Positions 8,560 through 20,583 of a stretch of 20,648 nt of DNA are shown here, one piece after another. The stretch's first letter is position 1; each line of letters begins with the position of its first letter. Position numbers and translations under genes: made by a program. The notes under the pieces were generated by a model, which had not been told where the DNA came from, searched no databases, and saw nothing but the letters and a program-made list of their open reading frames with translations. This DNA is from a virus: the IMG/VR virus record IMGVR_UViG_3300028666_000120, positions 1 through 20,648 of that record. One strand, written 5' to 3'.

Positions 8560-9921
8560 TCACAACACATCGGCAAGCGAACGCCCGCCTGCCAGTTCAT
8601 TGAACGCACCCGAGAACACGTCCACGATATCGTCGTGCCCAATGCCCTCTTCCCCGAAATTCTCAATCTCCGTGAAAAACTCTTCGTTCCACGGCGCGCG
8701 CTTCACCATGACGTTCCCTACCTCGGATTGCGCCGATACCGGCTTTGCGCGCGTCAATTTGTCGCTGGTAGGTTTCCTAATTCTTACATCATAGCCGGCC
8801 AGCATCCGCACGAAGTTTTCCGCATCCGCCACACCCGCACTCCCGGGGTCCTGCTCCCCGACCACGGGGACAGACACCGAATCATGGCTTGCGGTATTTA
8901 AGATCAGCCGCTCAACCTGGGCCGGACTGTCTCGCATGGATTTGAGATCCACCACACAGACCCGGTTGTTCGGGTATTTGTACATGAGAAGCCCACGCGT
9001 CCAATCCGGGTCGGGATTCTTTTCATGGGGCTTCGTCGCCGCCCGATCCCAGTAGCGCACGGATTGGATCCATCCCGCTGGGACCGCATCCACGATCTCA
9101 AACCACTCGCGGCGGAACATGGTGCCGGCCGATGCGCGGATATTCCAATTCCCATCCAAAAGACGTCCGCGATCAACTCGATTCAAGGCGAGAAGATTGC
9201 CCAGATAGGCTGGGTCTTTTTTCATCAGAATCTTGTTGTCCTGAAGTTTAGAAGGAATAAAGGTGATGCTTTTGGGCTGGATTTCCTCGCCATGGCCATA
9301 GGCGTGATAAATTTCTTCAGGCGAGTCGGCCCAGACCATCTCATCATTGCGACGGATGAAGTACCGAAGCACTCCAGAGCGTTCTCGAATGGGAAAGCCG
9401 TCCTCACCGATCCACCAGTCAATCCATCGGCGAACAAATGAATCAGGGTCCGGGTTAGTAGTCGCTCGAATCCTCGGCTTCACCCCCGATGTTGAACGAT
9501 TGCGGCTCAGCATGTAGGTGACCTGGGCTTCGGTGAAATGCGTGAGCTCATCAAAGCCGATCCACGGGATCTGAGCCCCTTGATAATTGAGGACATCCTT
9601 GTCGTGCTCGAGATGAGAAAACCCGAGGGCCATCCCACCAGGAAACTTCCACTCAAGCAACGCTTCTCTAGGCCGAGCTCCCAGGAGCGGGTAAATGGTC
9701 ATGCTCTCGTCCCAGAGTCCACCCTCGTTTCGGACTTGAACACTGGTCCTTCGGAAGATCGTCCCGCCAAATCGGGGATTGTGATAATGCCGGAGCGGAT
9801 CAAGAAGAAGCCCATAGGACTTTCCACCCCCCGCAGCTCCTCCGAAGATCGCGATATCTGCCTGCGTGGACAAAAACTGCGTCTGCGGGCCCGGTTGGGG
9901 TTCGATTTTAATCGCTTCCAT
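8560..9921 (-). CDS. Terminase large subunit
   Basis: This 453-residue protein is a complete large terminase. The N-terminal ATPase has a Walker A loop GGAAGGGKS at residues 27-35 and a Walker B with catalytic acid, WIGFDE, at 120-125. The C-terminal RNase H-like nuclease has its metal-binding acidic residues in RYWDRAA (about 295), VGEQDPGSAG (about 360) and GHDDIVDVFSGAF (about 430). It pumps DNA into the prohead and cuts concatemers, working with TerS and the portal. It overlaps the methyltransferase end by 14 nt and is followed 6 nt later by the portal gene. Length and motif order are normal. Confidence 0.93.
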   Translation of the reverse strand: MEAIKIEPQPGPQTQFLSTQADIAIFGGAAGGGKSYGLLLDPLRHYHNPRFGGTIFRRTSVQVRNEGGLWDESMTIYPLLGARPREALLEWKFPGGMALGFSHLEHDKDVLNYQGAQIPWIGFDELTHFTEAQVTYMLSRNRSTSGVKPRIRATTNPDPDSFVRRWIDWWIGEDGFPIRERSGVLRYFIRRNDEMVWADSPEEIYHAYGHGEEIQPKSITFIPSKLQDNKILMKKDPAYLGNLLALNRVDRGRLLDGNWNIRASAGTMFRREWFEIVDAVPAGWIQSVRYWDRAATKPHEKNPDPDWTRGLLMYKYPNNRVCVVDLKSMRDSPAQVERLILNTASHDSVSVPVVGEQDPGSAGVADAENFVRMLAGYDVRIRKPTSDKLTRAKPVSAQSEVGNVMVKRAPWNEEFFTEIENFGEEGIGHDDIVDVFSGAFNELAGGRSLADVL

Positions 9922-12025
9922 GCACCTGTTTTTTCATCTTCGGAATCGCGTGATAAATCCGCTTCTCCGCAATCTGCACATACTCCGCCTCGCGCTCAAT
10001 CCCCACGAAGCGCATGCCCTCTTCGAGAGCGGCAACGCCTGTGGTTCCACTGCCAGTGAAGGGATCGAGGACCTGGCCGCCGGGAGGGGTGATCATCCGG
10101 ATCAGGTAGCGCATGAGTTTGATGGGCTTAATTGTTGGATGTGTATTGCTGCTCGGAGATGCGCCTACGCTTCTTATCTCGAACTGCCCGGCGAGAAGAG
10201 CATGGTTTGCATTCGAAACATAATCCGTCTGGACGTTCGTAGTATTCGCGAACGTGTCTGAACACCTTGCAAGTTCCGCAAGGCTTCCACCACTCACCGT
10301 CAACAAGTTTGCATCCTGAATGCTCGCGCTTGTGTTCAAGCGCGCTAACCAGCTCAAGGTTTTCGATCTGATTGTCGAGCTTAATTTCGTTTTTGTGGTG
10401 GATCTGGTGCTTCGATGGGATTGGGCCGAAGTGTCGCTCCCAAACAACGTCATGTTCCATTCGGTAACGGAGCTGCTCATTGTCCCAGATACGCCTATAA
10501 CCCTTGGAGGTGAGCTGGCCGTATCCACCAGGAGCTGAGCTTTTAGGTCCGCACTTTCCCATGGCCCAAGGCTTACTTGAATTGCCTCGGTACCGTCAAG
10601 CCCCTCGCATCCCGCGTTGCGTTCGCGCTTGCTGGGCTTTGCGCAGTAGAAAAAGCGGGAAGCACCGCCGAAATCATTCCTGACAACTTGAGGACCTCCT
10701 CCCGGAGCGAGCGCAACGTTTGTTGTTTTGGTTGATTTCTGTTTTGGATTTCCGCCTCGCGCATGCGAAAGACCACTCTGCCGATCCATCTCGGCAATCG
10801 CGCATTCGATGTCGCATTGACCGTCGGTGCAGTAAGGCGTGTGGGATAGGACGAGATTCGCGGGGAATCGGCCTTGATTCGGATTAATGGGAAGACCTTT
10901 ATAATGCTCTTTTGTCCATTTATCTTGTGCATAAGTGCTCCTTGATTTAGAGCTTCCGATAAATCTATTTGGATCTCCTTCTTTTGAAGTTCCAACCCGG
11001 CACCCATCCACATTGATCGCGCCCGTTCCCCACCGCTGCACATTCGCGGCAACGGTTTTCTCGGAGCAGGGCTTTCGAACTAAGATCCAGTGCTCGGATG
11101 CGGGCTTGAGACCGCCGTTATACCATCCGTTCGCTTGGGGTTTTCCACAGACTTGACATGCCCTCAGGAACTGACTAGATCCTTCGGATGCCGAAAGAAA
11201 TGCGTCCGTGTGATCATTGCGGGAAGCCCGTTTATCGCTATCCGAGCGAGTGGTTCTTGTCTGTCTCCTGCTCAGCTCCTTGTCGTTTTGCTTTGATGGC
11301 GAGACGCAATCGGGGGGAGAACAATCCAGATTGGAAGGGCGGCCGATATCTTGAGCCCGAGAAGGGATACGTTCTGATTCGCAATCCAGCGCACCACCGC
11401 GCTCGACAAAATGGCTACGTTCTTGAGCACATTGTGGTGATGGAGAAGGTCCTTGGGCGCAGACTGAATCCGGGCGAAGTGGTTCACCATAAGAATCACC
11501 AGACGGCAGACAATCGTCCCGAGAACCTAGAACTCCATGCTTCGAATGGAGAGCATCTTCGAGAAGAAGGGCACCATCGAAAGAAACAGGATCCGTGTCG
11601 ATGCGGCCGTGAGGCAATAGCTCGTGGCTATTGTGATCGATGCTATGCGTACTGGCGCCGCACTGGCAAAACTCGCCCGACTTCGCCCGATTTAAGGCGC
11701 TCGACTTAGGGAAGCCTGACCCAAAGAGGTGAGTCACAATATCCCGAACCTCAAACCCCGCATCCTCAAGCGCGGTCGCCGTCCAGTGACTCGTTCGGGG
11801 AAGCGCCCAGACCAGGCCATGCGCACCGGGCTTCAGGACACGAAGGCATTCGCTCATCACCTCGCGCATCCAAGCGATCCACTGATCGCGTCCGCCCTTG
11901 TCGCCGTCCCAGTCCTTGCCCATGAACGAGATGCCCGCAGGCGGATCGGTTGCGAGCGCGTCGATCGAATCGGGCGCAAGCTTCCTCAGTTCGGTCAGGC
12001 AATCGCCGTGGAGGATTTCAGTCAC
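9908..12025 (-). CDS. Beta-class DNA methyltransferase interrupted in frame by two HNH genes
   Basis: About 705 residues, against roughly 400 for relatives. The core reads in beta-class order: motif IV as ATDPPAGISFMGKDWD (27-42), SECLRVLKPGAHGLVWALPR, GSGFPKS (102-108), GGLKPASEHWILVRKP and GTGAINVDGCRVG (TRD region), HPTIKPIKLMRYLIRM (motif X), and DPFTGSGTTG with FVGIERE (motif I, SAM binding). It would methylate adenine-N6 or cytosine-N4. Residues about 109-279 lie over the antisense HNH gene and 489-633 over the same-strand HNH gene; both stretches are Ser/Arg-rich and unlike the family. Removing them leaves about 389 residues. DPPA replaces the usual DPPY. GTG 12025 overlaps the terS stop region and has GGGAGCGAGGCG upstream; ATG 12043 is an alternative. 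Confidence 0.85.
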   Translation of the reverse strand: MTEILHGDCLTELRKLAPDSIDALATDPPAGISFMGKDWDGDKGGRDQWIAWMREVMSECLRVLKPGAHGLVWALPRTSHWTATALEDAGFEVRDIVTHLFGSGFPKSSALNRAKSGEFCQCGASTHSIDHNSHELLPHGRIDTDPVSFDGALLLEDALHSKHGVLGSRDDCLPSGDSYGEPLRPDSVCAQGPSPSPQCAQERSHFVERGGALDCESERIPSRAQDIGRPSNLDCSPPDCVSPSKQNDKELSRRQTRTTRSDSDKRASRNDHTDAFLSASEGSSQFLRACQVCGKPQANGWYNGGLKPASEHWILVRKPCSEKTVAANVQRWGTGAINVDGCRVGTSKEGDPNRFIGSSKSRSTYAQDKWTKEHYKGLPINPNQGRFPANLVLSHTPYCTDGQCDIECAIAEMDRQSGLSHARGGNPKQKSTKTTNVALAPGGGPQVVRNDFGGASRFFYCAKPSKRERNAGCEGLDGTEAIQVSLGPWESADLKAQLLVDTASSPPRVIGVSGTMSSSVTEWNMTLFGSDTSAQSHRSTRSTTKTKLSSTIRSKTLSWLARLNTSASIQDANLLTVSGGSLAELARCSDTFANTTNVQTDYVSNANHALLAGQFEIRSVGASPSSNTHPTIKPIKLMRYLIRMITPPGGQVLDPFTGSGTTGVAALEEGMRFVGIEREAEYVQIAEKRIYHAIPKMKKQVHGSD
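10128..10562 (-). CDS. HNH homing endonuclease-like protein nested in the methyltransferase
   Basis: This 144-residue protein is read in a different frame of the same strand as the methyltransferase. An N-terminal basic segment is followed by MEHDVVWERHFGPIPSKHQI, HHKNEIKLDNQIENLEL and EHKREH, the HNH_3-type pattern (His55-His56, Asn58, Asn68). A C-terminal zinc site (CGTCKV...CFECKPCSS) and a basic tail end it. Its stop (TAA, 10128-10130) lies inside the conserved HPTIKP codons of the methyltransferase, as if the gene borrowed its end from the target. No clear ribosome site precedes ATG 10562. It is probably a free-standing mobile endonuclease. No ribozyme-sized spare sequence is left, so it is not a group I intron ORF. 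Confidence 0.78.
   Translation of the reverse strand: MGKCGPKSSAPGGYGQLTSKGYRRIWDNEQLRYRMEHDVVWERHFGPIPSKHQIHHKNEIKLDNQIENLELVSALEHKREHSGCKLVDGEWWKPCGTCKVFRHVREYYERPDGLCFECKPCSSRRAVRDKKRRRISEQQYTSNN
11153..11181 (+). promoter_or_regulatory. Candidate sigma70-type promoter for the plus-strand HNH gene
   Basis: A perfect TTGACA (11153-11158) is followed by 17 nt and TAGATC (11176-11181), a weak -10. Transcription would begin about 7 nt further on, at or near the ATG at 11188, giving a leaderless message. The absence of a ribosome site before this ATG fits that. The weak -10 limits confidence. Confidence 0.35.
11188..11709 (+). CDS. HNH homing endonuclease-like protein antisense to the methyltransferase
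   Basis: This is the only convincing plus-strand gene. The 173-residue product has a zinc finger (CDHCGKP at 8-14, CSAPC at 28-32), a NUMOD-like GENNPDWKGGRY segment (43-54), the HNH core (NGYVLEHIVVMEKVLGRRL at 75-93, then HHKNH at 100-104 and NRPENLEL at 109-116) and a second Cys cluster (CRCGREAIARGYCDRC). Such enzymes nick or cut a target and are copied into it. It lies wholly within the methyltransferase gene on the opposite strand, and its TAG stop uses bases of the conserved GFPKS codons. The methyltransferase frame stays open across it. No Shine-Dalgarno sequence is seen; see the promoter entry. Confidence 0.85.
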   Translation: MPKEMRPCDHCGKPVYRYPSEWFLSVSCSAPCRFALMARRNRGENNPDWKGGRYLEPEKGYVLIRNPAHHRARQNGYVLEHIVVMEKVLGRRLNPGEVVHHKNHQTADNRPENLELHASNGEHLREEGHHRKKQDPCRCGREAIARGYCDRCYAYWRRTGKTRPTSPDLRRST

Positions 12026-12572
12026 GTTTCGCCTCGCTCCCATTCGCAGGGACCGTCACCACCACTTGAATGGCGCCGCCATCTTTTCCGGTTAGCTCCA
12101 CCTTGTCCGTAAAAAGTTTCAGATGCCTTCCCAGAAGCTCAAGCGCGCGCGGCTTGTCCCAGAACTTCACTTTCTTGGTGAGGCCGATCGCATGTTTTTG
12201 ATCGCCCTGTCCGTCAAAGATCTCGCTCACCTCAAGGCCAGCGATGGCACGCCGAACATCCTCGGGGATATCCTTCAGCGGCTTCAGCTGTCCCATCTCA
12301 TCGAAGGCTTCCGAAACATCAACGGTCGCGATCCGAAGGAGTTCATGGAGAACGCGGTCGGCGGTAATCGCGGTCCGCTTAGATCGTTGATCCAGAAGCT
12401 CCTGAAGCCTCTCCGTAATGTTCGGTCTTGTTAGGATCTCGGAAGCCTGACTCCTGGCGCTTTTCTCGCTGTAGCCCGCGCGGATCGCAGCTTGGCTCGC
12501 ATTGAGGTCGATGATGTATTCCTGGCAGAACCGCTCCTGTTGCGGAGTCAGCTTGCCCTCTCGTTTAGCCAT
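12018..12572 (-). CDS. Terminase small subunit (Terminase_2 type)
   Basis: The 184-residue product starts MAKREGKLTPQQERFCQEYI and has the N-terminal HTH of Terminase_2 small subunits (NASQAAIRAGYSEKSARSQA, ILTRPNITERLQELL). A middle oligomerisation region follows (VLHELLRIATVDVSEAFDE), and the C-terminus ends VKLEKV-like beta (KVELTGKDGGAIQVVVTVP). TerS rings bind the packaging start site and load TerL. A longer frame to TTG 12614 is open but covers the palindromic site, so ATG 12572 is preferred although its ribosome site is weak. It overlaps the methyltransferase by 8 nt. Location two genes before terL, separated by a methyltransferase, is common in phages. Confidence 0.85.
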   Translation of the reverse strand: MAKREGKLTPQQERFCQEYIIDLNASQAAIRAGYSEKSARSQASEILTRPNITERLQELLDQRSKRTAITADRVLHELLRIATVDVSEAFDEMGQLKPLKDIPEDVRRAIAGLEVSEIFDGQGDQKHAIGLTKKVKFWDKPRALELLGRHLKLFTDKVELTGKDGGAIQVVVTVPANGSEAKRD

Positions 12573-12603
12573 GAATCCATGGTAATTCCTGCCGGAACTT
12601 TTT

Positions 12604-12630
12604 GCCAGCGACAAATTGTCGTTTGCAGAT
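12604..12630. promoter_or_regulatory. Candidate operator, copy 2 (27-bp palindrome upstream of terS)
   Basis: The core CGACAAATTGTCG (12609-12621) is a perfect 6+1+6 inverted repeat centred at 12615. With flanks it matches 3171-3197 at 24 of 27 positions in reverse complement. It lies about 35 nt upstream of the terS ATG. A second GTTTGCAG (12648-12655) repeats 12621-12628 at a 27-bp spacing. Confidence 0.5.
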
Positions 12631-12656
12631 GCGAGCGCCGATTTGGCGTTTGCAGG

Positions 12657-12866
12657 CTAGATTTCTTGCTCGCCTAGTCTCAAAATATCAGCCGAAATTG
12701 ATCGCGGAGTATAATCGCACGAGCGTTGAGGCTTTGTTCTCGCGGACTCGGCGGCAAGATCTCGTGCTTTCACGAATCCGGCTTTAAATGCATCGGTATG
12801 ATAGCACCCGCCAGCGCAGGGGCATTTATCGCTGTATTCCCGAGCCAGCTTCTCGATGAGATTCAT
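12657..12866 (-). CDS. Small hypothetical protein
   Basis: This 69-residue protein starts MNLIEKLAREYSDKCPCAGG and includes CPCAGGCYHTDAFKAGF, a Cys/His cluster that might bind a metal. A basic helical middle follows. The ribosome site AAGGAAG lies 6 nt before the ATG. The start overlaps the upstream membrane-protein gene by 41 nt. I do not recognise a family. The gene ends 84 nt before the terS start, and the gap holds the palindrome and the GTTTGCAG repeats. Confidence 0.6.
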   Translation of the reverse strand: MNLIEKLAREYSDKCPCAGGCYHTDAFKAGFVKARDLAAESARTKPQRSCDYTPRSISADILRLGEQEI

Positions 12867-12978
12867 TTTGTTCTTCCTTTACGATCTTGTAACCACAAAT
12901 CCGAAGCGCGGACCAAACAAGCGCGATCGTAGCGATTATGATCTTCAGTTCATAGAGGTATTCGCCAAATAAGGTCAC
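12826..12978 (-). CDS. Small one-helix membrane protein
   Basis: This is a 50-residue ORF with GTG start at 12978 that overlaps the ParB stop (GTGA). Residues about 11-31 (LKIIIATIALVWSALRICGY) form one hydrophobic helix. They are preceded by MTLFGEYLYE and followed by a charged tail (KIVKEEQNESHREAG). One transmembrane segment with a cytoplasmic charged end is plausible. The G-rich run before the start could serve as ribosome site. It may be a small phage membrane protein (holin-like or exclusion), but nothing specific is seen. The large out-of-frame overlap with the next gene lowers confidence. Confidence 0.5.
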   Translation of the reverse strand: MTLFGEYLYELKIIIATIALVWSALRICGYKIVKEEQNESHREAGSGIQR

Positions 12979-13946
12979 CCCCGCCCCCGAATCATCCGCT
13001 TCTCGCTCCCGCGCTTCACAATCGCCTTCACGTACCCGAGCGCCGATCGCTGGTAGCTCGTGAATTTCTCGATCCGCTTGGCCAGCTCGCCGAGTGCTTT
13101 GAGGCTCTCATGCTTCATGTCGCCCTCAAAGGCGAGCCGATTTTCAAGCGCAGACTGGATCTCTTCGCTCAGATTTTCTACGGACCGGATCAGCGGTTTA
13201 AGCCTTGGATCTTCTTCGTGTGTATCCGCCTGATCAAGAACGACCGCCTTCGCTCCCCGGCGTTTCGCAGCGTCAACAACCGACCGAAGCTCTTTTACAT
13301 CTTTCTTCCGAGCCAAAGGGAGAAGAAGGTCTTGGTCATGGGCCGGTAGTGTCACAAGCAAGTCCACCTTGGACGGCGAAAGATCGCCCTTTTCACGCGC
13401 TGCTTTGACCTTGTCCGAAGCTTTGGACGCCCGAGAGACCGCACGCTCGACGGTTCGTTTCGTGATCCCAAGTTTCCTTGCCGCATCATGGGTGAACGCC
13501 TGAGCGGGCTTTGCTTTGCCTCGTGCTTTCGCGTGCTTCGCATGCGCGCCGGCTGATCCCTGTTTGGTCTCCGGGTGCAGCTCCTCGTAGATCTGCTTCC
13601 GGCGGTAAATCGCCTCATCGAGTTCCGCGCCGGTCAGCTGTTGGCGCATGATGTTCTCGTCGATCTTGATCAGCTCGCTTTGGAGCTCGTTCAGGTCGGT
13701 CACGTAGACCAAGGCTTTGACTTCCTTGTCCGGGGTGATCTCGTCTTGGATGTGAGTGAGCGCGGCGAAGCGGCGGCGTCCGGCAATGACCCGGTACTCG
13801 CTTCCCTGCTTTTGAACCGTGATGGGGTTGATCTGGCCGGCAATCAGGATGCTCTGGGCGAGCGACTCGATGTCCATTTTGAGGCGATGCTTTTGATCCT
13901 CCACGATGAGCTTCCAGATCGGGACGGACTCAATTTTTCCGGTCAT
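12975..13946 (-). CDS. ParB-like protein (ParB N-terminal domain plus HTH)
   Basis: The product has 323 residues. The N-terminal ParB domain is clear: an interface start (VPIWKLIVEDQKHRLK), SILIAGQINPITVQ, then the GRRRFAAL nucleotide-contacting motif near residue 57 and ENIMRQQLTGAELDEAIYRR near 97. An HTH follows (AARKLGITKRTVERAVSRA, about 160-178) and then a long charged C-terminal region. ParB-like phage proteins act in plasmid-prophage partition, as regulators or as nuclease-type Srx-fold proteins. No parA is seen here, so regulation or packaging-linked DNA binding is as likely as partition. The ATG at 13946 has GGAGG 9-10 nt upstream. The palindromes at 12609 and 3178 are candidate targets (speculative). 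Confidence 0.82.
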   Translation of the reverse strand: MTGKIESVPIWKLIVEDQKHRLKMDIESLAQSILIAGQINPITVQKQGSEYRVIAGRRRFAALTHIQDEITPDKEVKALVYVTDLNELQSELIKIDENIMRQQLTGAELDEAIYRRKQIYEELHPETKQGSAGAHAKHAKARGKAKPAQAFTHDAARKLGITKRTVERAVSRASKASDKVKAAREKGDLSPSKVDLLVTLPAHDQDLLLPLARKKDVKELRSVVDAAKRRGAKAVVLDQADTHEEDPRLKPLIRSVENLSEEIQSALENRLAFEGDMKHESLKALGELAKRIEKFTSYQRSALGYVKAIVKRGSEKRMIRGRG

Positions 13947-14356: not shown

Positions 14357-15298
14357 CTAAACAGGCATTTCAATTTGTCGGGGCGACTCTATGTATTCGA
14401 AAACTTTAGTGATGACGTGCTTTTCCCGTTTGTCCTTATGGGTCCAAAGGGTCTCCACGCGAAGCTGAACGTCCAGGAAATCTCCCGCATAGAAGGGTTG
14501 CTCTCTAGAACTAACCTTTTTTAGAAACTCTTCGTCCTCAATGGCCGCATAAAACCGGTTCTCCTTCTCTTTGAATCGCCATTTTAACGTGGGATCAAAA
14601 CTAACCGTGCTTATAAGGAGTCTGGTGCGCCTTTCTTCTATTTCAATTTCTTCAGATCCGGATTGCCTAAAAAGATAGGAATTTACATCGTCCTTATTTA
14701 CCGATCTGAGCGTTTGATTGTTTTTCTTTACATCAAATCGATCAATTCCGGCCTTAGTAATTGGCTCTATAATTTCAGATACAGATCTCCTGATTTCGGT
14801 GTCTTGATAAAGATTATAGATGGTCTGGGAAATGACGATCGCTTTGTCACCTGACTCGACTTGAACACTTCCGTCCTTTTGGGTGGTCACTTTTGTGACT
14901 TTTCCGCCTTTAAGCCATTCCAAAAAATCAAAGAGACTCGTCTTGCTGTCCTTGACGAAACCGATGATTTGTAAGACGCGATCGATATCCGTTATTCCCA
15001 CACCCACAAACAACGTAAGGAGAGGGGAAAACCAACCTTGTACAATTTCTAGATCAACCGGAAAAGATCCCGCTCTAAATCCGCTGACTGTAATCTTAAG
15101 TTCGGCCTTGCCTTGGTTGATATTCTTATTTGCTGCGTGGAGAAGCTGACTCATTGCAGCCAGGGCTGGAACGATGACGTTGAGATCGATCGATCCATTT
15201 CGAAGCGAAGGCCCATCATAACTTAGGACAATCTGAGATCGACTCATTTCCTGGCTTTCTTGCTTGATTTCCGGCTTCTTTCGACGTGGTTTGGCCAT
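14357..15298 (-). CDS. AT-rich moron-like gene; uncharacterised two-domain protein
   Basis: This 313-residue protein has a short basic leader (residues 1-18), then SQIVLSYDGPSLRNGSIDLN, VPALAAMSQLLHAANKNIN and GFRAGSFPVDLEIVQGW. A second hydrophobic stretch (LLTLFVGVGITDIDRVLQIIGF) precedes a beta-rich C-terminal domain (VSFDPTLKWRFKEKENRFYA, IEDEEFLKKV, PFYAGDFLDVQLRV). I recall a widespread uncharacterised bacterial family with this order (possibly the DUF7946/DUF7947 pair), but cannot verify it. Three sampled lines (14641-14820) are 34% GC against about 63% in two sampled capsid lines. It has its own promoter and no ribosome site, so it looks like an independently expressed, recently acquired moron. 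Confidence 0.78.
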   Translation of the reverse strand: MAKPRRKKPEIKQESQEMSRSQIVLSYDGPSLRNGSIDLNVIVPALAAMSQLLHAANKNINQGKAELKITVSGFRAGSFPVDLEIVQGWFSPLLTLFVGVGITDIDRVLQIIGFVKDSKTSLFDFLEWLKGGKVTKVTTQKDGSVQVESGDKAIVISQTIYNLYQDTEIRRSVSEIIEPITKAGIDRFDVKKNNQTLRSVNKDDVNSYLFRQSGSEEIEIEERRTRLLISTVSFDPTLKWRFKEKENRFYAAIEDEEFLKKVSSREQPFYAGDFLDVQLRVETLWTHKDKREKHVITKVFEYIESPRQIEMPV

Positions 15299-15304
15299 CG
15301 ATAT

Positions 15305-15320
15305 ATGAATCGGAATTCAT
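15305..15320. promoter_or_regulatory. Inverted repeat in the moron leader (candidate operator)
   Basis: ATGAAT-CGGA-ATTCAT is a perfect 6-bp inverted repeat with a 4-nt spacer, lying between the -10 box and the ATG of the 313-residue gene. It could be a repressor site or a small hairpin. Confidence 0.35.
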
Positions 15321-15323
15321 CCA

Positions 15324-15352
15324 TTATTACTTTATGCATTTTATATTCTCAA
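15324..15352 (-). promoter_or_regulatory. Sigma70-type promoter of the moron gene
   Basis: On the minus strand TTGAGA (plus 15347-15352) and TAATAA (15324-15329) are separated by exactly 17 nt of AT-rich sequence. The predicted transcript starts near 15316, giving a leader of about 18 nt before ATG 15298. The -35 box overlaps the stop codon of the 52-residue gene. Confidence 0.6.
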
Positions 15353-15507: not shown

Positions 15508-15803
15508 GCCGGGTCATGGATGCAGGGCGCGTTCCAAATTCAAGAGCAGGACCGGGCCATGAGGGGTTCTGTAGCCGTAGCGCAAAGACCCTTCCGCCGC
15601 TGTCTACGGGTAGCGACTCTGTACCCGAATCCTGCTCCATTCCAAGCGGTCATACCTGTTTTCAGGTTTGACTGGGCCGAAACCCAGCCTACACATCCCG
15701 GCTTACCCGGGGACCTGCCGCTGGTTCTTTGCCAGGTTTCATCCCGGCAAATCCTGTTATGTTACACAAATTTGTGTCACTTGTTTGTGTTACACAAAAC
15801 ATT
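15508..15803. other. Region without a confident gene
   Basis: No ORF here is convincing. Short minus-strand frames of 17, 30 and 55 codons occur (for example ATG at 15608 giving MEQDSGTESLPVDSGGRVFA) but lack ribosome sites. The right-hand end carries the two palindromes. The plus strand gives TTGTTT-17-TTATGT (from 15781), a weak promoter with no gene behind it. Confidence 0.5.
15761..15798. promoter_or_regulatory. Pair of operator-like palindromes
   Basis: ACACAAATTTGTGT (15764-15777) is a perfect 14-bp palindrome, extended to 15761-15780 with one mismatched pair. TTTGTGT-T-ACACAAA (15784-15798) is a perfect 7+1+7 palindrome built from the same half-site. Their centres are about 20-21 bp apart, two helical turns. 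This looks like tandem repressor sites between the small-gene operon and the next genes. Confidence 0.6.
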
Positions 15804-19640: not shown

Positions 19641-19830
19641 TTCTTTTTCCCCTCGATTTCACTTCTTTCCAGATCTCTCGGTATTTCTCTCTGCCCTGCA
19701 CCGAGAGTGTCTGCATCAGCGCCACAACCTCTTGATCCCGCCCTTGCTCCAGCGCCGCCCTCACAAACTCTTCCATCGTCATCCATCCGCTTTTCTTCGG
19801 AGTTCGCTCTTTTTTTTCGTCCGAACTCAT
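19507..19830 (-). CDS. Hypothetical protein (107 aa), large 3' overlap
   Basis: The product starts MSSDEKKERTPKKSGWMTME and is well formed to about residue 65 (FVRAALEQGRDQEVVALMQT, YREIWKEVKSRGKR), with a charged helical composition. The rest (ERTGDLPIPKDSSGGAETG and on) is low-complexity and overlaps the next gene by 134 nt. It starts at an ATGA overlap with the HNH gene. No family is recognised. Confidence 0.55.
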   Translation of the reverse strand: MSSDEKKERTPKKSGWMTMEEFVRAALEQGRDQEVVALMQTLSVQGREKYREIWKEVKSRGKRNEPTSNRQHHSAERTGDLPIPKDSSGGAETGIEATPNPDAGAER

Positions 19831-20219
19831 GGGGAATCAGTCGGTCTCCAATCGGTCTGATCCCATGCCCCTTTGCCAAGATTGCAGTCCTCGCAAAGAA
19901 CCTGGAGATTTCCGAGTTCGAGGGCCATCTCAGGAAATTTGGAGCGCGGTTTGATGTGATCCACATGAAGTTTTTCTCCTGCTCCGCATGCCTGACATTT
20001 TCCACCCTGTTTCTTCAACGCCTGATAACGAAGTCTTCTCCAGTCTTCGGTTTGATAAAAATCGGATCTTCTATAAAGCCCCGCGCAGCTGCCCCTGCAA
20101 AATCCCTCGATGAAATGCTTTTTTTTTGTTTCCGCAGGACAGTTTTTCCACATTCCGCAGTGTTTACATTTAAATCTGAAATACTTTTTATTCTTTGTTG
20201 AAATCCAATTCGGATTCAT
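19827..20219 (-). CDS. HNH endonuclease
   Basis: The 130-residue product starts MNPNWISTKNKKYFRFKCKH. A zinc-like Cys set (CKHCGMWKNC, CRGSC) precedes the HNH core: YQTEDWRRLRYQALKKQGGK, CQACGAGEKLHVDHIKPRSK, NLQVLCEDCNLGKGAWD. His in VDHI, Asn in LGNLQ and the Cys pairs are those of the HNH family. A longer frame to GTG 20336 adds a basic 39-residue leader, but only ATG 20219 has a ribosome site (AAGGAAAAGAAG). The sequence around 20101-20220 is AT-rich (25 of 60 and 15 of 60 GC in two lines), suggesting transfer. It may be a free-standing homing nuclease or a packaging HNH. Confidence 0.78.
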   Translation of the reverse strand: MNPNWISTKNKKYFRFKCKHCGMWKNCPAETKKKHFIEGFCRGSCAGLYRRSDFYQTEDWRRLRYQALKKQGGKCQACGAGEKLHVDHIKPRSKFPEMALELGNLQVLCEDCNLGKGAWDQTDWRPTDSP

Positions 20220-20583
20220 CTTCTTTTCCTTGGGTTCAGATCTTTGCGAAGACACACGTTTCCTACTGGGGTCCGAAACGGTGCCTTCGCGTCGATTCCC
20301 TTCTTTTCCTTTGGGACGAGTCTTCGCTTTAGACACAGGGTTTCAGGTGAAAGACCAAAACCCATCAGAAGCAGACTTGGCGGGATCTTCACTCCCGACT
20401 CGCTGGCGCTCCGCTTCTCAGCGTCTCCGCTGGTTTCCTACGCCTGGGGCTATTGCGCTCACGTCCGTCGCCCCTACTGTCACGATTCAAGCCCCGTTGG
20501 TTTCTCTCCTGGCTTGAGCCGGATCTTTATGCTCGTCGATTCACCCCACTACCCCGGCCGCCCCAAAATCCTCGGCCCGTTGC
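20220..20583. other. Region without a confident gene; several hairpins
   Basis: If the HNH gene starts at 20219, nothing codes convincingly here. GC-rich inverted repeats occur: TCAAGCC/GGCTTGA (20487-20517, 7-bp stem), GGGGC/GCCCC (20446-20474) and a CAGCG-GAGA-CGCTG type stem on the minus strand near 20420. A GTG-start extension of the HNH gene would cover 20220-20336. I see no clear promoter. Confidence 0.45.

What the first reader, a model, noticed from the sequence alone, without database searches (positions are those of the whole stretch)
14357..15352. Autonomous AT-rich moron with promoter, leader palindrome and no ribosome site
Seen: 34% GC over 14641-14820 against about 63% in two sampled capsid lines; TTGAGA-17-TAATAA ends about 25 nt before the ATG; a 6-bp inverted repeat lies in the leader; no Shine-Dalgarno is seen. 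Known: morons are extra phage genes with own promoters, often giving host or defence functions. The protein resembles an uncharacterised bacterial family with an N-terminal PxLRNGSID domain and a C-terminal beta-barrel. A lysogen-expressed trait such as superinfection or defence is possible.
Basis: partly seen in the sequence, partly recalled or inferred. Interest (0 to 1): 0.6.

Follow-up and report, generated by a model that had tools for sequence, protein, structure and literature searches.

The report
Phage-carried accessory defence-candidate gene
This phage carries one foreign-looking gene from a widespread family of temperate-phage accessory genes, distantly related to a mycobacterial prophage protein reported to block other phages, so it is most likely a phage-versus-phage defence gene rather than a structural part.

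Summary
It has the only strong sigma-70-like promoter match in the record. The leader palindrome is not above chance. Promoter activity and lysogenic expression are untested, and the record has no integrase.

The protein belongs to a named family: PADLOC candidate PDC-S42 (E 2e-73), NCBIfam LAPAL_fam (8e-61) and phrog_3243. What I can add:
(1) The family is homologous over most of its length to gp29 of mycobacteriophage MichelleMyBell, half of the reported prophage defence pair MMB_gp29_gp30.
(2) In 12 of 32 non-redundant repressor-bearing loci the gene lies directly downstream of a CI-type repressor, the rexAB position of lambda (1.4 expected).
(3) The gene is GC-poorer than neighbouring genes in 93 of 100 loci.
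(4) The predicted fold is a ferredoxin-like domain with a hydrophobic insertion, then a C-terminal OB-fold.

NCBIfam's "structural protein" label is not supported. Best reading: a single-gene phage-exclusion or abortive-infection protein. Whether it senses nucleic acid through the OB domain and damages the membrane through the insertion is a hypothesis.

The parts
14357..15298 (-). CDS, 313 aa, PDC-S42 / LAPAL_fam / phrog_3243 family protein
   Evidence: PDLC05015 2e-73, NF053583 8e-61 (206 bits, cut-off 60), phrog_3243 8.9e-60
14663..15247 (-). N-terminal ferredoxin-like alpha+beta domain (residues 18-212), with the family motif region DGPSLRNGSID...VPALAAM
   Evidence: AlphaFold2 models, pLDDT 87-89; PDB matches are ferredoxin-like folds, best Z about 6; conserved residues
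14909..15046 (-). Hydrophobic, partly low-confidence insertion (residues 85-130) in the N-terminal domain; possible membrane-interacting segment
   Evidence: Most hydrophobic 19-residue stretch in nearly all of 45 family members, above 1.6 in 18 of 45; P0001 itself 1.54; lowest pLDDT block
14375..14653 (-). C-terminal OB-fold domain (residues 216-308)
   Evidence: VIA-align Z 8.6 to yeast mtSSB Rim1, 7.7 to the ExoVII OB domain, about 7 to RPA and HIN-200
15323..15352 (-). sigma-70-like promoter TTGAGA-18-AATAAT
   Evidence: only site of 10/12 or better in the record; shuffle P 0.03; activity unproved
15305..15320 (-). 6-bp leader palindrome ATGAAT-TCCG-ATTCAT
   Evidence: present, but P 0.11 by shuffling; probably chance

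Best explanation
14357-15298 is a horizontally acquired accessory phage gene of the PDC-S42 / LAPAL_fam family. The family most likely gives a phage-infected or lysogenic cell resistance to other phages, as a single-gene exclusion or abortive-infection protein distantly related to MichelleMyBell gp29. Shown here by computation: family membership, foreign composition, homology to gp29, recurrent placement behind CI repressors, and the predicted two-domain architecture. Inferred: the antiphage function in this phage. Hypothesis only: the C-terminal OB-fold senses a nucleic-acid or SSB-like product of an incoming phage, and the N-terminal domain responds through its hydrophobic insertion, stopping growth or damaging the membrane. 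That would do in one chain what RexA plus RexB, or gp29 plus gp30, do in two.
For: Family: (45 of 45 collected members match PDC-S42). Homology to MMB gp29: PDC-S42 model E 1.6e-16, own profile E 1.8e-15 at Z 1e6 with the best of 2000 shuffles at 9.7 bits against 62.5, hhalign 98% and E 4e-14 over 253 columns. gp29 with gp30 is a reported prophage defence: MichelleMyBell prophage lowers Tweety plating 4-5 logs (PMC8549241), behaves as abortive infection (PMC6426606), with gp29 toxic and gp30 a putative membrane protein (PMC11856565). Position: directly downstream of CI in 12 of 32 repressor-bearing loci, 1.4 expected, none of 100,000 simulations as high, the 12 repressors at most 38% identical; beside the integrase in Listeria LmoS_188 and Bifidobacterium PMBT6, between endolysin and integrase in Lactobacillus A2. 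Temperate carriers: 10 of 14 viral records with the gene have a tyrosine integrase. Accessory: GC below neighbouring genes in 93 of 100 loci; absent from 22 relatives of the window. Structure.
Against: PDC-S42 itself is only a candidate, and no paper testing it was found. gp29 is reported as part of a pair, and the window lacks a gp30-like small membrane ORF, as does the family at large (2% against 4% for control genes). The window record and nearly all its kin show no integrase, so a lysogenic setting is not shown. Defence genes are not notably enriched next to the family, and many bacterial-genome loci have housekeeping neighbours. The window protein departs from several near-invariant family residues. 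Hydrophobicity of the insertion is borderline in P0001 (1.54).
Confidence: 0.62

Rival explanations
1. It is a minor structural or morphogenesis protein, as NCBIfam NF053583 names it.
For: NCBIfam label; in some Mu-like prophages the gene lies beside the virion morphogenesis (gpG-like) and Mu F genes; in the window it is co-directional with the head genes.
Against: Not found in relatives that share the window's head module at roughly 40-74% identity; sits in the lysogeny module in Listeria, Bifidobacterium, E. coli and other phages; GC differs from neighbours; OB-fold architecture.
Confidence: 0.08
2. It regulates or modulates recombination, replication or the lysis-lysogeny decision through an OB-fold that binds single-stranded DNA, without defending against other phages.
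For: OB-fold like SSB and RPA; placement next to CI and near gam/bet/exo in lambdoid prophages.
Against: Homology to toxic gp29 of a defence pair; occurs in very different phages and on plasmids, so not tied to one replication or immunity system.
Confidence: 0.2
3. It is a toxin or stabilisation gene that helps the element persist, not aimed at phages.
For: gp29 is described as toxic; some homologues are on plasmids.
Against: No partner antitoxin is conserved next to the family gene.
Confidence: 0.1

Closest known systems
PADLOC PDC-S42 (PDLC05015) / NCBIfam NF053583 LAPAL_fam / phrog_3243
   Same: Full-length profile match, same size and order of conserved blocks (GSF, P179/G184, KWR, D255/F258, D273).
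   Different: Deep branch, at most 32% identical to any aligned member; name-giving motif reads IVPAL instead of LAPAL; several near-invariant residues changed.
MichelleMyBell gp29 of the MMB_gp29_gp30 prophage defence
   Same: Homologous over about 250 residues, 310 against 313 aa, both domains.
   Different: About 18% identity; gp30, a 67-aa protein with a strong hydrophobic segment overlapping the gp29 end, has no counterpart in the window; gp29's own hydrophobic stretch is weaker (1.09 against 1.54).
Lambda RexAB exclusion system
   Same: Family members repeatedly occupy the rexAB position directly downstream of CI; DNA-binding-type domain plus a possible membrane element.
   Different: No homology to RexA found; RexA is reported as RdgC-like and dimeric (PMC11077077); one protein, not two; in the window no CI or integrase is seen.
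SSB / RPA / Rim1 OB-fold proteins
   Same: Fold of the C-terminal domain (Z 8.6).
   Different: No sequence match; ssDNA binding not shown.

Membership tests
PDC-S42 / LAPAL_fam / phrog_3243 | Profile match above the curated score over nearly the full protein | tested here: met
   206 bits against cut-off 60; PDLC05015 2e-73 over residues 18-312
PDC-S42 / LAPAL_fam / phrog_3243 | Demonstrated antiphage activity of the family | not testable with these tools
   Candidate only; no paper names PDC-S42
MMB_gp29_gp30 defence system | gp29-like protein | tested here: met
   remote homology through the family
MMB_gp29_gp30 defence system | adjacent small membrane protein gp30 | tested here: not met
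   no small hydrophobic ORF within 500 nt of the gene in the window; the method finds gp30 in MichelleMyBell and its counterpart in prophiT48-1
RexAB exclusion | gene pair downstream of the CI repressor | tested here: not met
   no membrane partner gene next to it and no repressor recognised among the window genes searched
RexAB exclusion | RexA (RdgC-like) fold | tested here: inconclusive
   not among listed PDB matches, which does not exclude it
moron (accessory phage gene) | composition unlike the rest of the phage | tested here: met
moron (accessory phage gene) | absent from related phages at the same place | tested here: inconclusive
   absent from 22 related records, but these are fragments or distant, and the matching site was not seen
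moron (accessory phage gene) | own promoter and terminator | tested here: inconclusive
   promoter-like site present, no terminator-like site at the 3' end
moron (accessory phage gene) | expression from a prophage | not testable with these tools
   needs RNA; no integrase in the record
phage structural protein | part of the conserved structural module of related phages | tested here: not met
   not found in kin that share the head module, with the caveat that these are fragments
phage structural protein | present in virions | not testable with these tools
   needs mass spectrometry of particles

The most novel reading that the evidence does not exclude
PDC-S42 / LAPAL proteins are a single-chain counterpart of the two-protein RexAB and gp29-gp30 exclusion systems. 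The OB-fold senses infection and a built-in hydrophobic hairpin replaces the separate membrane partner. Phages of several bacterial phyla have repeatedly placed the gene behind CI so that it is expressed in lysogens.
Probability: 0.2. Interest if true: 0.65.

Novelty: new member of a known kind. Interest (0 to 1): 0.42.

Why it matters
The family is annotated in public genomes as 'hypothetical' or 'putative phage structural protein'. Its link to gp29 and its recurrent position behind CI suggest it is instead a widespread exclusion gene with an OB-fold. A cheap test (expression of a few members against a phage panel) would settle the role of genes carried by temperate phages of Proteobacteria, Firmicutes, Actinobacteria and other groups.

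Tried and rejected
Leader palindrome as an operator: not above chance. A direct search for close relatives of the window protein found none in viral or genome contigs; a tree could not place it (support 0.14 or less). PDB search by sequence: nothing (one chance-level row). Whole-model and N-terminal Foldseek searches gave no PDB match at E 1e-3; RexA or RdgC did not appear, which proves nothing. Small membrane partner next to the family gene: not enriched. RexB in the carrier phages: no hit, but the controls were silent too, so uninformative. Weak Pfam matches (DUF7946 in 3 of 45 members, EACC1 in one) were not pursued. The original report on MichelleMyBell gp29 (Nat Microbiol 2017, doi 10.1038/nmicrobiol.2016.251) is not held, so its findings are cited through later papers.

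Full report
What is there. The finding covers a 313-aa ORF on the minus strand at 14357-15298 in a 20,648-base IMG/VR virus record. The record carries head genes, portal and large terminase to the left, then a DNA methyltransferase and a ParB-like protein, and small genes and an HNH endonuclease to the right, all on the minus strand by my gene caller. The upstream TTGAGA...AATAAT is the only match of 10 of 12 or better to the sigma-70 consensus on either strand of the record. In so AT-rich a leader a match this good arises in 3% of shuffles, and the 6-bp palindrome in 11%. So the composition is firm, the promoter is plausible, and the palindrome carries no weight.

What family. The protein matches PADLOC PDC-S42 at 2e-73, NCBIfam LAPAL_fam at 8e-61 (206 bits, cut-off 60) and phrog_3243 at 9e-60, with no Pfam or PDB match. 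Homologues were gathered from phages, plasmids, viral contigs and bacterial genomes, giving 105 clusters at 85% identity. All 45 aligned members match PDC-S42. Carriers include Listeria, Lactobacillus and Bifidobacterium phages, E. coli prophages in 34 of 5426 genomes, and contigs assigned to Burkholderia and other Proteobacteria, Bacteroidota, Acidobacteria and Gastranaerophilales.

Link to a reported defence gene. A search with the Bifidobacterium PMBT6 member reached the cluster N mycobacteriophages, including gp29 of MichelleMyBell. gp29 is 310 aa and homologous over most of its length: the PDC-S42 model scores it 1.6e-16, my family profile 62.5 bits against 9.7 for the best of 2000 shuffles, and hhalign gives 98% over 253 columns. 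Papers that could be read say that the MichelleMyBell prophage lowers plating of Tweety by four to five orders of magnitude (PMC8549241), that its system behaves as abortive infection (PMC6426606), and that the system MMB_gp29_gp30 is a toxic gp29 with a putative membrane protein gp30 (PMC11856565). I found no paper that joins PDC-S42 or LAPAL to gp29, but only open-licence papers were searched.

Where the family lives. Among 32 non-redundant loci with a CI-type repressor, the family gene is the next gene downstream on the same strand in 12. Random genes of the same loci would give 1.4, and none of 100,000 simulations reached 12. The 12 repressors are at most 38% identical to one another, so the arrangement arose or was maintained many times. 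This is the place of rexAB in lambda (from general knowledge of lambda); two E. coli examples are L191 and L192. In other phages the gene lies beside the integrase or between endolysin and integrase. Ten of 14 viral records with the gene have a tyrosine integrase. The gene is poorer in GC than neighbouring genes in 93 of 100 loci. In three Mu-like loci it lies next to virion morphogenesis genes, which may be the origin of the structural label.

This phage. None of 22 relatives found through the terminase carries the gene, including some that share much of the head module. These records are fragments, and the corresponding intergenic site could not be compared. The window record and 9 of its 11 searched relatives have neither a tyrosine nor a serine integrase. 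So the accessory nature is well supported, but lysogenic expression in this phage is not.

Structure and possible mechanism. The AlphaFold2 model (mean pLDDT 87) shows a ferredoxin-like N-terminal domain (best Z about 6, a common fold) and a C-terminal OB-fold (Z 8.6 to Rim1, then ExoVII, RPA, HIN-200). The N-terminal domain carries an insertion at residues 85-130 that is the most hydrophobic part of nearly all members, above 1.6 on the Kyte-Doolittle scale in 18 of 45, and 1.54 in the window protein. In MichelleMyBell gp29 this stretch is weaker (1.09) and a separate 67-aa protein with a strong hydrophobic segment, gp30, overlaps its end. The wider family has no such neighbour: 2% against 4% for control genes, with the method finding gp30 as a positive control. 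This suggests, without proving, that the family keeps sensing and membrane action in one chain.

Verdict. An ordinary accessory gene of a known candidate family, with a useful new link to a reported defence protein and to the rexAB position. Family membership is near certain. An antiphage role is likely but untested. The mechanism is a hypothesis.

Noticed in passing
window 15757-15798: Adjoining palindromes TGTTACACAAATTTGTGTCA and TTTGTGTTACACAAA (the latter a perfect 15-bp palindrome), the only exact such site in the window; looks like an operator or a ParB-type site, about 450 bp upstream of the gene.
   Followed up: partly
window 8560-13946: A DNA methyltransferase (N6_N4) and a ParB-like protein lie next to the large terminase, on the same strand.
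   Followed up: no
window 19827-20336: HNH endonuclease at the right end.
   Followed up: no
E. coli STEC388 NZ_CP041425.1 3561511-3563225: The family gene appears interrupted by an IS1 element, so it is probably dispensable there.
   Followed up: no
L010 4826-5476: Hymenobacter plasmid copy is truncated and runs into an integrase-core (transposase) reading frame beside a methyltransferase and specificity-subunit locus.
   Followed up: no
L224 4791-5345: Pipsqueaks gp31 (184 aa) is an N-terminally truncated relative of MichelleMyBell gp29 that keeps the OB domain.
   Followed up: partly
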